Made by a program: the position numbers and the translations under genes. Below the pieces are notes generated by a model, which saw only the letters and a list, made by a program, of their open reading frames with translations, ran no database searches and had not been told where the DNA came from. From contig JAILZY010000041.1 of assembly GCA_023512255.1 (NCBI GenBank), positions 1-30,912 on the forward strand: a stretch of 30,912 nt of DNA. The letters run 5' to 3'. Every line of letters begins with the position of its first letter. Position 1 is the stretch's first letter. Source of the stretch: a bacterium. GTDB lineage: Bacteria; SZUA-182; DTGQ01. Positions 1-30,588 of this stretch are shown piece by piece.

Positions 1-23
1 CCATAAACCCTCAAAGGAGCTTA

Positions 24-70
24 GCTCTTATTAGGGTTATGTCTCTCAATGGTAGCTAATAAATAAGAGC
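24..70. other. Inverted repeat upstream of the phosphate genes
   Basis: GCTCTTATT at 24-32 is the exact reverse complement of AATAAGAGC at 62-70, giving a 9-bp stem with a 29-nt loop just ahead of the DUF47 gene. It could be a leader hairpin or the terminator of a gene lying before the window. No gene is recognisable in bases 1-113. Confidence 0.35.
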
Positions 71-113
71 GAAAATTATAACCACAAGTTAAAGAATAAG
101 GATATCTATACTG

Positions 114-1984: not shown

Positions 1985-3643
1985 TTAGCCGCGATGGAAA
2001 GGGATTAGCAAAGAGGGCTCTTCCTGGAATTGGAAAGTAGGGGCAGCAATAACACTGGCCATGAACCAAAACAGGAGGACATTGGGACAAATTCCACCCT
2101 CCCAGGCAGAAAAGACAAGCCAGGTGGATAGCCAGAATGACAGGGCTGGGTTTATGAATTTCCGATAGCTTCGAAGATAGTGATACAGACCGATGCTTTC
2201 TCTAGCCAGATCCTCTGCCTCCCAGGATGAGGCAGCAAGGAGAGCTACGGGCAAAAAGCAGCAGGAGTCAAAGGGAAAGGCCGGGGAGAATTCATTGAGA
2301 AAGGAGAGAACAATATTCTGAAAAGGGTGTCCACTGGCAGGAAAGAAAGCCGGATCAACTAGTGATTCCTCCTGTTTGGCCAAAGCATGGCTGAAGGCTT
2401 CGGCTAGCTCGGTGAAGCGCTCAACACACCCTTGAGGGTTTTGCCGCCCTTGCAGGCAAAGGAGTAAAGAGGCCAACCTGCGATCTCGCTCTGAAAGGAG
2501 GTAATTTCTTCTCTCCAAAATTCGGCTGATTGGCTGAATCTGCCGCAGCGACCAGGAGTTGTCAGCCAAAACCATCGTGAGCAGAGCATCCCAAGCCGGA
2601 TCTGACCTGGATAAGCAAAAGTGCTCGTTTTTCTTCAACCGGGCCACATCCCGTACGCAGGAGCAGATCTTTTCCTCTGAGCAGCCAGCCAGGGTCAGGG
2701 CCAGAGCCAAAGCCAAAGTCTCAGGTTTTTTTGCCAGCCCCAAGTTTTGCAGCAAATCAGCCGTCTTCAACATGCTGACTGCGGCTGATTCTGTGGCTTG
2801 ATTAAACTTTAGAATCATAGCCAGCCAAACAGAAAATTGCTCCCGCACTAACGATGCCTGCTGCTCATCGATCCATTCCCAGGCAAAGCTCCAGCCGATT
2901 ATGGAATCGAGTTTTGGCTTTTCCTGAAAAAATATGCTGACTATATCCTCCAGGCTATCTGAGGGGAGGGGAGAGAGAATCAAGGCTACCAACCAAAGGG
3001 AGGGAAAGGCTGAGGCAGAGTGGCCAAGAGAGAGCGAATAGAAAACCTCAATCACCTGCCTCATCCGGCTCAAAAGTTCCTCTGTCGAGGGGAACTTAGG
3101 CAGAACGATTTCCCAAACCCGCATCAGGCGCACTAGAGATCGGCTCGACGAAGATGATGAAGATGAGGGTTGAGAAGAAGCGGGATTAATCACATACTCT
3201 ATCCTAACCGGCTGATGGCAGCCAGGGCAGTGAAAATCATAGTGAAAGATTTTCTTCTCCTCCTTTTTCTTTGAGTCTCTCGATTCTAAATGTTCCTTCT
3301 CCCGAGGGGAGGCGCTACAGTCGAAAAGTGCTCGGTAGAACGATCCTATACCTGGTCCAGAAGTGGTGGAGCGGCGATTTTTGATCAGATCGGCAAGGGT
3401 TAAGGTAACTTCCTGCTTGCAGATCGCACATGTGTAGCGAGAAAATGATCGGCCCGCCTCATCTTGGTTCTCGATCGGCTCAAATTCCGTTCGGCTAAGC
3501 CGCTTTTGCGGTTGCAGGCTTACAATGTCCATACCTTTCTTGTCGGTACGGGGTATCAATAAATTCTGAAAAATTATTTCCCTAATTGTCCAGAAACTAT
3601 GTTTTTTGCATTTTTCCTCCGAGCCCTTGATTTTACTGGACAC
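1985..3643 (-). CDS. Unrecognised zinc-ribbon protein; start inside a miniature element
   Basis: A 552-aa protein I do not recognise. After a poorly conserved-looking N-terminus there is a putative zinc ribbon: TCAICKQEV near residue 70 and HCPGCHQPV near residue 139, two CxxC pairs about 68 residues apart. A Ser-rich low-complexity linker (about 158-168) follows, then a long helical Leu-rich middle and a hydrophobic C-terminus (about 490-535) that might span the membrane. The listed start is GTG at 3643. AGGAGG lies 9 nt upstream, and both the GTG and this ribosome site lie inside a 125-bp miniature element (3641-3765). An ATG at 3532 (MDIVSLQPQ) is an alternative and leaves the CxxC pairs intact, but its AAAGG is only 1-2 nt from the ATG. 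No neighbour suggests a function. The gene stands alone between two plus-strand groups. Confidence 0.7.
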   Translation of the reverse strand: MSSKIKGSEEKCKKHSFWTIREIIFQNLLIPRTDKKGMDIVSLQPQKRLSRTEFEPIENQDEAGRSFSRYTCAICKQEVTLTLADLIKNRRSTTSGPGIGSFYRALFDCSASPREKEHLESRDSKKKEEKKIFHYDFHCPGCHQPVRIEYVINPASSQPSSSSSSSSRSLVRLMRVWEIVLPKFPSTEELLSRMRQVIEVFYSLSLGHSASAFPSLWLVALILSPLPSDSLEDIVSIFFQEKPKLDSIIGWSFAWEWIDEQQASLVREQFSVWLAMILKFNQATESAAVSMLKTADLLQNLGLAKKPETLALALALTLAGCSEEKICSCVRDVARLKKNEHFCLSRSDPAWDALLTMVLADNSWSLRQIQPISRILERRNYLLSERDRRLASLLLCLQGRQNPQGCVERFTELAEAFSHALAKQEESLVDPAFFPASGHPFQNIVLSFLNEFSPAFPFDSCCFLPVALLAASSWEAEDLARESIGLYHYLRSYRKFINPALSFWLSTWLVFSAWEGGICPNVLLFWFMASVIAAPTFQFQEEPSLLIPFHRG

Positions 3644-3765
3644 TCATGGCTACCTCCTCATGAGGAGCCGGAATCCGAGGAATTTTTACCCCTCGATTCC
3701 CGCTTTTGGCGAGAAGTGACGGAATGGTGATTTAGCTGACTTTTCACTGAAAATGGCCGTGAGCG
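3641..3765 (-). mobile_element. Miniature inverted-repeat element, family 1, copy A
   Basis: This 125-bp element has imperfect terminal inverted repeats: CACTCATGGC at 3641-3650 and GCCGTGAGCG at 3756-3765 (consensus CGCTCATGGC). It is flanked by TTACTGGA (3633-3640) and TTACCGGA (3766-3773), an 8-bp target duplication with one difference. Its whole length matches, in the opposite orientation, the copy at 8417-8540. Inside are two further stems, around CTCCTCATGAGGAG and GAATCCGAGG/CCTCGATTC. It has no transposase and must have been moved in trans. Its left end supplies the start region of the minus-strand gene. Confidence 0.85.
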
Positions 3766-3969
3766 TTACCGGATTTGCTATTAGAGGTGATTTTCAGGGA
3801 TTTCAAGGTGTTAAGAAATTTCTGCAAACATGAAGCAAAAAGTGAGTATGTGAAAAAAATATTGTCAAGTAGCCAATTTCAGCTTGACAAAGAAACCTTT
3901 TTCAAGGATATTTTCGGTGTGGTTTTTGAAGAATTCAAAAGCCCTGTCCTATCCTATACTCAAGAGTAA

Positions 3970-6205: not shown

Positions 6206-6234
6206 CTCATTAGGCCACATTTTTTCCAGCCTAA

Positions 6235-6349
6235 GTGGTCTTTTCGCTAACAAAGTGCACAAGCTGGGCGGGCATAAGGTCCGCACCTACAATTGATAGC
6301 GTAATTGATCCGCCGCGCACTTGTGTTACGCACTTAGCGAGGAAACCAC
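6235..6349 (-). mobile_element. Miniature inverted-repeat element, family 2, copy 1
   Basis: A 115-bp element from GTGGTCTTTTCGCTAAC to TTAGCGAGGAAACCAC. It is flanked by TAA on the left (6232-6234) and CAA on the right (6350-6352). Its reverse complement matches the copies at 21663-21780 and 26191-26326 along the whole length, including GGCGGATCAATTACGC. No coding capacity. Confidence 0.8.
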
Positions 6350-6352
6350 CAA

Positions 6353-6469
6353 GTGGTCTTTTCGCTAACAAAGTGCACAAGCTGGGCGGACCTTTGGGCC
6401 GCCCCTAGACGTAGGTGTGGGTTTTAAACCCAACCTTACCTTGTGTTACGCACTTGGCGAGGAAACCAC
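6353..6469 (-). mobile_element. Miniature inverted-repeat element, family 2, copy 2 (variant interior)
   Basis: A 117-bp element directly abutting copy 1 in the same orientation, with the same two ends and a perfect flanking CAA/CAA (6350-6352, 6470-6472). Its interior differs from the other copies: it holds two hairpin-forming stretches, GGGCGGACCTTTGGGCCGCCC-like and GTGGGTTTTAAACCCAAC. It lies between the SpoIID-domain gene and the Cys-rich gene. Confidence 0.8.
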
Positions 6470-6588
6470 CAAGTTTACCATCCTGCCATATTTTAATTAT
6501 TCTTACCGATTATAATTTAAGTTAATACTTTTTTTACAGATTATAAGCCTGATTGATAGGCAATAACAACTAAGAAGGAGAATTAATT

Positions 6589-8408: not shown

Positions 8409-8548
8409 ATCAAGTACGCTCATGGCCATTTTCGGTGAAAAGTCAGCTAAATCACCATTCCGTCACTTCTCGCCAAAAGCGGGAATCGAGGAGTAAAAAT
8501 TACTCGGATTCTGGCTTCTCACGAATGGTAGCCATGAGCGATCAAGTA
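8409..8548 (+). mobile_element. Miniature inverted-repeat element, family 1, copy B, with perfect 8-bp target duplication
   Basis: The element itself is 8417-8540 (124 bp), from CGCTCATGGC to GCCATGAGCG, a perfect 10-bp terminal inverted repeat. It is flanked on both sides by ATCAAGTA (8409-8416 and 8541-8548). The body matches the element at 3641-3765 in reverse orientation. It lies 32 bp past the stop codon of the acyltransferase gene. There is no transposase; the 8-bp duplication points to a DDE-type transposase acting in trans (family not identified). Confidence 0.92.
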
Positions 8549-12455: not shown

Positions 12456-13193
12456 ATGATAAATGTAAAGAAATTCGCCTATGCCCTTTTGGTCAGTTTC
12501 GCCGCCTTGCTTATTGCTTATACACCAGCTGCTCAGGCTCAAAACTGGATGGCCCTGCCCCCTTACAACACCCTGTGGCCGTTGTGGTCGCCTACCTTGT
12601 CTCCTGTTAATCCTGCCACTGGATTGCCAACCCCAGTTGTATCCTCGCTGACTCCAAGCACGGTTTTGCCGGTCCAACCTGGCCTGACCTGGGACCCTGC
12701 GGCAGCTAATCCCTGGCTGCTTTACAATACCCCGCTAGGTATGGCTTATTATGATCCGGTCAGCGGAGTAAATCTGTGGCCGCCATCATATCTGTTGGAT
12801 GCAGCCGGCCTTCCTCTGCCCCTCGCTCTGCCTGTGGGCTATGGGTCTCTACCCCCAACCTCTTCTTCCTGGCTGGCCAGCACTACGCCAGTAGCTAATG
12901 CAGCTATTTTAGCTTATTTGATGACCGTGCCATTCATTGGCCCCACCTTTGCGCCCACAGTACCTGTAGTTGCTCCGACCTTTGCACCTACTTTTGCTCC
13001 TACAGTGGCGCCCACTGCTACCCCGACCTTTGTTCCACCAGTGGCACCTACTTTTGCTCCGCTGGCTACGACCATGATCATCGGACCGACCTTCACTCCT
13101 ACTTTTGCGCCTACTTTTGCTCCAACCACTGCTCCGCTGGCTACGACTATGATCATCGGACCAACCTTTGCACCAACCGCACCTGTAATTTAA
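12456..13193 (+). CDS. Exported Pro-rich PTFAP-repeat protein
   Basis: A 245-aa protein with a classic signal peptide (MINVKKFAYALLVSFAALL, likely cleaved after AQA at residue 28). The mature region to about 160 is rich in Pro, Leu and Trp. From residue 162 to the end it is made of short repeats of the form PTFAP, APTV or APTA, including a longer module, APLATTMIIGPTF, present twice (residues 201-213 and 226-238). There are no cysteines and few charged residues. Such composition suggests an extended cell-surface or matrix protein; no known domain is recognised. The start is firm: GGAGGAA lies 7-8 nt before the ATG. It is preceded by the long non-coding region and followed by a bidirectional terminator at 13253-13297. 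The repeat tract is prone to length change. Confidence 0.78.
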   Translation: MINVKKFAYALLVSFAALLIAYTPAAQAQNWMALPPYNTLWPLWSPTLSPVNPATGLPTPVVSSLTPSTVLPVQPGLTWDPAAANPWLLYNTPLGMAYYDPVSGVNLWPPSYLLDAAGLPLPLALPVGYGSLPPTSSSWLASTTPVANAAILAYLMTVPFIGPTFAPTVPVVAPTFAPTFAPTVAPTATPTFVPPVAPTFAPLATTMIIGPTFTPTFAPTFAPTTAPLATTMIIGPTFAPTAPVI

Positions 13194-21602: not shown

Positions 21603-21662
21603 TCTCAAAGCATGGAGTCATTATCAATCTCATTTTAATCTCATTTTCAGGCAGACCACTGA

Positions 21663-21780
21663 GTGCTTCTTTCACTAAATGCGTAACAAAAGTGCGCAGC
21701 GGATCAATTACACAATCAATTGTAGGTGCAGACCTTGTGTCCGCCCCCCAGCTTGCGCACTTTGTTAGCGAAAAGACCAC
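21663..21780 (+). mobile_element. Miniature inverted-repeat element, family 2, copy 3
   Basis: A 118-bp element from GTGCTTCTTTCACTAAATGCG to TTAGCGAAAAGACCAC with a perfect TGA/TGA flank (21660-21662 and 21781-21783). It matches copy 4 directly and copy 1 in reverse along its whole length. The left end has diverged more than the right. It sits between the convergent ATPase and Slp genes. Confidence 0.82.
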
Positions 21781-21809
21781 TGAGAGGCCGATTAGATAAG
21801 GATGTGGAT

Positions 21810-26139: not shown

Positions 26140-26190
26140 AAGCATTCGCTGGTGAATAGGGGCTGTGGTCTCAGGGGGGCTTTTGCTTAA

Positions 26191-26326
26191 GTGGTTTTCT
26201 CGCTAAGTGCGTAACACAAGTGTGCAGCGGATCAATTACGCTTCAATTATAGGGTGCGGATAAGCTAATTGTAGGGGTGGCCCTTAGGTCCGCCCAAATT
26301 GCGCACTTTGTTAGCGAAAAGACCGC
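26191..26326 (+). mobile_element. Miniature inverted-repeat element, family 2, copy 4
   Basis: A 136-bp element from GTGGTTTTCTCGCTAAGTGCG to TTAGCGAAAAGACCGC with perfect TAA/TAA flanks (26188-26190 and 26327-26329). It has the same orientation and homologous interior as copy 3. It lies between two glycosyltransferase genes and may separate their transcription. Confidence 0.85.
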
Positions 26327-26386
26327 TAAGCATATTGAAAGATATAAAGATATCAATAAGATAAAGATATGCATAAAAGAAATAAG

Positions 26387-30435: not shown

Positions 30436-30484
30436 ACAACTCATGCAGGAGAAAAACGGTTTAGCAGAAAGGTCCATAGATTAA

Positions 30485-30588
30485 ATGGTTCTTTCGCTAA
30501 GTAAATATACATTAGCGATAACCTCTTCGAGGCCAAAACTTTAAGATTAGCCTTTAATTAGTGATTCCGTACTTAGCGAAAGAACCAC
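30485..30588. mobile_element. Miniature inverted-repeat element, family 2-related, copy 5
   Basis: A 104-bp element with a perfect 18-bp terminal inverted repeat, TGGTTCTTTCGCTAAGTA against TACTTAGCGAAAGAACCA. It is flanked by TAA (30482-30484) and TAC (30589-30591), an imperfect 3-bp duplication. The ends match family 2 but the interior does not, so it is probably a separate subfamily moved by the same enzyme. Confidence 0.75.

What the first reader, a model, noticed from the sequence alone, without database searches (positions are those of the whole stretch)
8409..8548. A 124-bp miniature element with perfect ends and a perfect 8-bp target duplication
CGCTCATGGC/GCCATGAGCG ends and ATCAAGTA on both sides define the insertion exactly. 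The copy at 3641-3765 matches along the whole length in the opposite orientation and has its own 8-bp duplication with one difference (TTACTGGA/TTACCGGA). Two independent insertions with readable duplications establish a mobile, non-autonomous family. The internal stems suggest an RNA or DNA fold beyond the ends. I do not recognise the family.
Basis: seen in the sequence. Interest (0 to 1): 0.7.

Follow-up and report, generated by a model that had tools for sequence, protein, structure and literature searches.

The report
Species-specific IS1595-type miniature transposon (MITE)
The 124-bp element is a genuine but ordinary miniature jumping-DNA family: about 14 copies in this one bacterial genome, almost all with 8-bp target duplications, most likely moved by an IS1595-type transposase.

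Summary
The element at 8417-8540 has perfect 10-bp ends and a perfect ATCAAGTA duplication, and the copy at 3641-3765 is a second insertion. The genome holds 13 near-full copies (85-100% identical to the window copy) plus one diverged copy. Thirteen of these 14 have an 8-bp duplication matching at 6-8 of 8 positions; cross-paired flanks reach 6 in only 2 of 182 pairs. The 3641 copy sits inside an older interspersed repeat. Paralogous copies of that repeat lack the element and hold the target once (mostly as TTACTGGA), which shows insertion directly.

The family is absent from a same-genus genome, from 58 further genomes, and (by one exact core pattern) from GTDB r220. No intact partner was found.

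The best mobiliser is an IS1595-family transposase. A sister miniature family with CGCTC ends and 8-bp duplications (at least 105 copies) shares its termini with a broken IS1595 in this genome. A truncated IS1595 in the same-genus genome ends in a sequence close to this element's right end. The fold shows no covariation and needs no RNA function.

Verdict: a new family of a known kind, low to moderate interest.

The parts
8409..8416 (.). left 8-bp target duplication ATCAAGTA
8417..8540 (+). family A MITE, 124 bp, ends CGCTCATGGC/GCCATGAGCG; no transposase gene
8541..8548 (.). right 8-bp target duplication ATCAAGTA
3633..3640 (.). target duplication TTACTGGA, the form held once in most paralogous empty sites read
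3641..3765 (-). second family A copy, inserted inside an older interspersed repeat
3766..3773 (.). target duplication TTACCGGA (one change)
1..71 (+). truncated copy of sister family B (CGCTCTTATATATCAGACACCAT...TAAGAGCG), cut by the contig end

Best explanation
[quoted passage not shown] A DDE transposase acting in trans binds its imperfect terminal inverted repeats (about 30 bp, CGCTCATGGC outermost) and inserts it by a staggered cut of 8 bp, preferring A/T at both ends of the target. Shown here: copies, ends, duplications, target bias, paralogous empty sites, and absence of the family in the same-genus genome. Inferred: the transposase belongs to the IS1595 family (zinc ribbon plus ISXO2-like DDE domain), from a subgroup in this bacterial family whose elements end in CGCTC rather than GG. 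The mobiliser is probably extinct in this genome or missing from the assembly.
For: 13 of 14 copies carry duplications matching at 6 or more of 8 positions. The joined flanks of the 3641 copy align across the junction to paralogs that hold the target once. Sister family B has 105 left ends in this genome and none in eight relatives, CGCTC ends, and 24 of 30 duplications matching at 7-8 of 8. Family B shares its termini (21 of 22 outer bases on the left; a weaker match on the right) with the only IS1595 transposase found in the genome, at C83, whose two halves match the IS1595 zinc ribbon (E=4.3e-7) and DDE (E=5.1e-21) models. In the same-genus genome an IS1595 transposase (E=1.1e-31) is followed by a terminus, 74 bp after the stop, reading CGCTCATGCCTAGATACCGTGAGGAGCC: close to the family A right end and beginning at its first base. 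A same-family genome has an IS1595 remnant with CGCTCATG at its 3' side. Other IS1595 elements recovered here have 8-bp duplications, some with GGCTCTG or GGCTATG ends; the literature gives 8 bp for the family (PMC8101967, PMC12561309).
Against: No intact IS1595 with both family A termini was found. The C83 copy has an internal stop and no clear duplication; the same-genus copy lacks its left end. The right-end match is moderate (1 of 150 shuffles of the 4-kb locus scores as high), and the left end of family A shows no match there (97 of 150 shuffles equal or exceed). CGCTC departs from the GG start described for the related Merlin elements.
Confidence: 0.78

Rival explanations
1. It is a MITE, but mobilised by a transposase of another family with 8-bp duplications (for example ISL3, IS66, IS256 or ISAs1).
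For: Several families make 8-bp duplications (general knowledge). The genome also holds DDE_Tnp_1 transposases. IS66 and IS256 models were not searched.
Against: No ISL3 match in this genome. The C29 DDE_Tnp_1 element, IS4-like by NCBIfam, is bounded by different repeats (TCTCACTACCGGACA). IS1595 remnants in this bacterial family have CGCTC termini.
Confidence: 0.17
2. It is a structured RNA or regulatory palindrome kept for function, such as a terminator or attenuator, and only secondarily mobile.
For: Strong single-strand fold, z about -6 for the 8417 copy on either strand; 12 of 14 joined sites lie in no ORF of 100 aa or more.
Against: No Rfam match at gathering score, no covariation, no terminator-like site, no element at the syntenic site in the same-genus genome. 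A palindromic MITE folds this way anyway.
Confidence: 0.04
3. It is an ancestral intergenic repeat and the flanking duplications are coincidental.
For: None found.
Against: 13 of 14 duplications against 2 of 182 cross-pairs; paralogous empty sites; absence in relatives.
Confidence: 0.01

Closest known systems
IS1595 family insertion sequences
   Same: 8-bp A/T-rich duplications; terminal inverted repeats; transposases with Zn_ribbon_IS1595 and DDE_Tnp_IS1595 domains adjoining CGCTC termini in this genus and family
   Different: The element is 124 bp and has no transposase gene; termini start CGCTC rather than GGCT; no intact partner found
Prokaryotic MITEs in general (for example MITEAba12, Nezha)
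   Same: short, non-coding, inverted termini, target duplications, multicopy, mostly intergenic
   Different: Sequence not recognised as any described family; ISfinder was not available to check
Merlin transposons of eukaryotes
   Same: related DDE domain and 8-9-bp duplications (PMC8101967)
   Different: Merlin ends in GG and lacks the zinc ribbon

Membership tests
MITE | short, non-coding, multicopy | tested here: met
   116-125 bp, 13 near-full copies plus one diverged
MITE | terminal inverted repeats | tested here: met
   10-bp perfect ends at 8417-8540, imperfect inverted similarity over 30 bp
MITE | target-site duplication of fixed length | tested here: met
   8 bp in 13 of 14
MITE | pre-insertion site without the element | tested here: met
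   paralogous repeats hold the target once; the exact orthologous empty site is not recoverable because the intergenic region diverged
IS1595-derived MITE | 8-bp target duplication | tested here: met
IS1595-derived MITE | both ends shared with an IS1595 element | tested here: inconclusive
   a same-genus IS1595 resembles the right end; its left end is lost. For sister family B both ends match the C83 element
IS1595-derived MITE | intact IS1595 transposase available in the genome | tested here: not met
   the only match has an internal TAG; the assembly is 172 contigs, 96.6% complete, so a multicopy IS could be missing
IS1595-derived MITE | transposition in trans by an IS1595 transposase | not testable with these tools
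   needs an experiment
ISL3-derived MITE | ISL3 transposase in the genome | tested here: not met
   PF01610: no match
structured RNA family | covariation supporting the fold | tested here: not met
   1 of 35 pairs with a two-sided change, covariation term +0.38

The most novel reading that the evidence does not exclude
A subgroup of IS1595 elements with CGCTC termini, in place of the usual GG start, gave rise to at least two separate MITE families that expanded within one species while the transposase itself decayed.
Probability: 0.5. Interest if true: 0.35.

Novelty: new member of a known kind. Interest (0 to 1): 0.22.

Why it matters
It adds a well-delimited MITE family with paralogous empty sites and ties it, with a much larger sister family, to the IS1595 group. 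In the open-access papers I searched, including a 2024 review of prokaryotic MITEs that does not mention IS1595 (PMC10969869), I saw no description of such a link, though the search was narrow. It also shows short repeats reshaping one uncultured genome, with family B copies sitting at several contig ends.

Tried and rejected
ISL3 as source: no match in the genome. C29 DDE_Tnp_1 element as partner: own, different terminal repeats. C86 17-bp exact end match as an autonomous element: no left end and no transposase there. Single TIR-like hits at C3:12119, C42:4330 and C69:50906: no paired end with a duplication. Viral-contig hit L034: lacks the rest of the element and looks like coding sequence. 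Generic terminal-repeat search around IS1595 loci of relatives with strict rules: uninformative. Rfam on the element: only a sub-threshold snoRNA match, taken as chance. Literature search for the end sequence: unrelated papers by title.

Full report
Observation. The window is one whole contig (C23) of a 3.83-Mb, 172-contig genome. At 8417-8540 lies a 124-bp sequence with 10-bp perfect inverted ends and ATCAAGTA on both sides. The copy at 3641-3765 is inverted, 92% identical and flanked by TTACTGGA/TTACCGGA. The coordinates and the claim are correct.

Family. A genome search gave 13 near-full copies; an end-pattern search gave one more diverged copy at C134:31709-31831. Shorter or weaker matches (L014-L017) look like decayed relatives. 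Thirteen of 14 carry an 8-bp duplication matching at 6-8 positions, with A or T at nearly all outer target positions; control cross-pairs average 2.7 and reach 6 in 2 of 182. The exception, C35:76271, has no match at its flanks. Mean divergence from consensus is 4.6% for the 13 near-full copies.

Insertion. The flanks of the 3641 copy, joined with one target copy, align across the junction to several interspersed paralogs in the same genome. Of six printed, four hold TTACTGGA once and two hold it with one change (TTAATGGA in L016, TTACTAGA in L025); the C86 paralog also holds TTACTGGA once. At the 8417 site the same-genus genome G001 keeps the two neighbouring genes in the same order but has no matching element; the intergenic region has diverged too far to show the exact junction.

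Distribution. There was no match in 59 other genomes, nearest held relatives first, including one of the same genus. An exact 22-base core pattern found nothing in GTDB r220 contigs, though that pattern would miss diverged copies. The one viral-contig hit lacks the rest of the element.

Sister family B. A scan for CGCTCATG-like ends (up to two mismatches) with matching 8-bp flanks gave 23 pairs against 0-15 for permuted words, and 17 against 0-2 at the stricter cut; the counts include known family A copies and some overlapping loci. It exposed a second family of about 113 bp, CGCTCTTATATATCAGACACCAT...TAAGAGCG. Its left end occurs 105 times in this genome and not at all in eight relatives. Of 30 copies read, 24 have duplications matching at 7-8 positions; mean divergence is 2.4%.

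Mobiliser. The one IS1595 transposase found in this genome, at C83, reads in two halves split by a stop; they match the IS1595 zinc ribbon and DDE models. It is bounded by CGCTCTCATATATCAGACACCA and, on the other side, CGCTCTCAATTTATTAGACGCCAT, close to the two ends of family B. No duplication is readable around it. In G001 a truncated IS1595 transposase, 42% identical over the matched part to the C83 one, is followed by CGCTCATGCCTAGATACCGTGAGGAGCC, similar to the family A right end from its first base; 1 of 150 shuffles of the 4-kb locus scores as high, and 0 of 2000 shuffles of the 60-base end itself. The left end of family A has no match at that locus. G003 has an IS1595 remnant with CGCTCATG at its 3' side. 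So the IS1595 link is strong for family B and moderate for family A.

Function of the fold. The 8417 copy folds strongly on both strands, but the consensus fold of 14 copies has essentially no covariation and no Rfam family reaches its gathering score in the window. The palindromic layout explains the fold.

Placement. Twelve of 14 joined sites lie in no ORF of 100 aa or more; for the 3641 copy and L005 a mechanical ORF spans the site, which I did not test as a gene.

Conclusion. This is a real, species-limited MITE family; IS1595 mobilisation is the best-supported mechanism, at about 0.78. It is a new member of a known kind.

Noticed in passing
window 1-71; 105 places genome-wide: Family B, a much larger MITE family (about 113 bp, 8-bp duplications); several copies lie at contig ends, so it probably breaks the assembly.
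   Followed up: yes
window 6231-6474, 21653-21784, 26190-26330, 30482-30588: A third repeat family with inverted ends like AGTGGTYTTTTCGCTAA; two copies are in tandem at 6231-6474. Target duplication unclear, possibly TA in some copies.
   Followed up: partly
window about 3600-3640 and 3774-3860; L022, L016, L049, L057, L035, L025: An older interspersed repeat of about 90 bp or more into which the 3641 copy inserted; its nature was not studied.
   Followed up: partly
window 12963-13169: Tandem repeats of 12-75 bp inside the ORF 12456-13193, which has no Pfam match.
   Followed up: no
L040:701-2001 (C29): A 1.3-kb IS4-like element with ends TCTCACTACCGGACA.
   Followed up: partly
L002:114-237 (C78): A family A copy whose left flank is a family B copy and whose right flank matches the AGTGGT repeat family: adjoining or nested repeats.
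   Followed up: partly
L133: The contig of relative G002 appears to be DAOURK010000046.1 (same length, 30,188 bases), labelled Pseudomonadota MAG CSMAG_150; the label was not checked.
   Followed up: no
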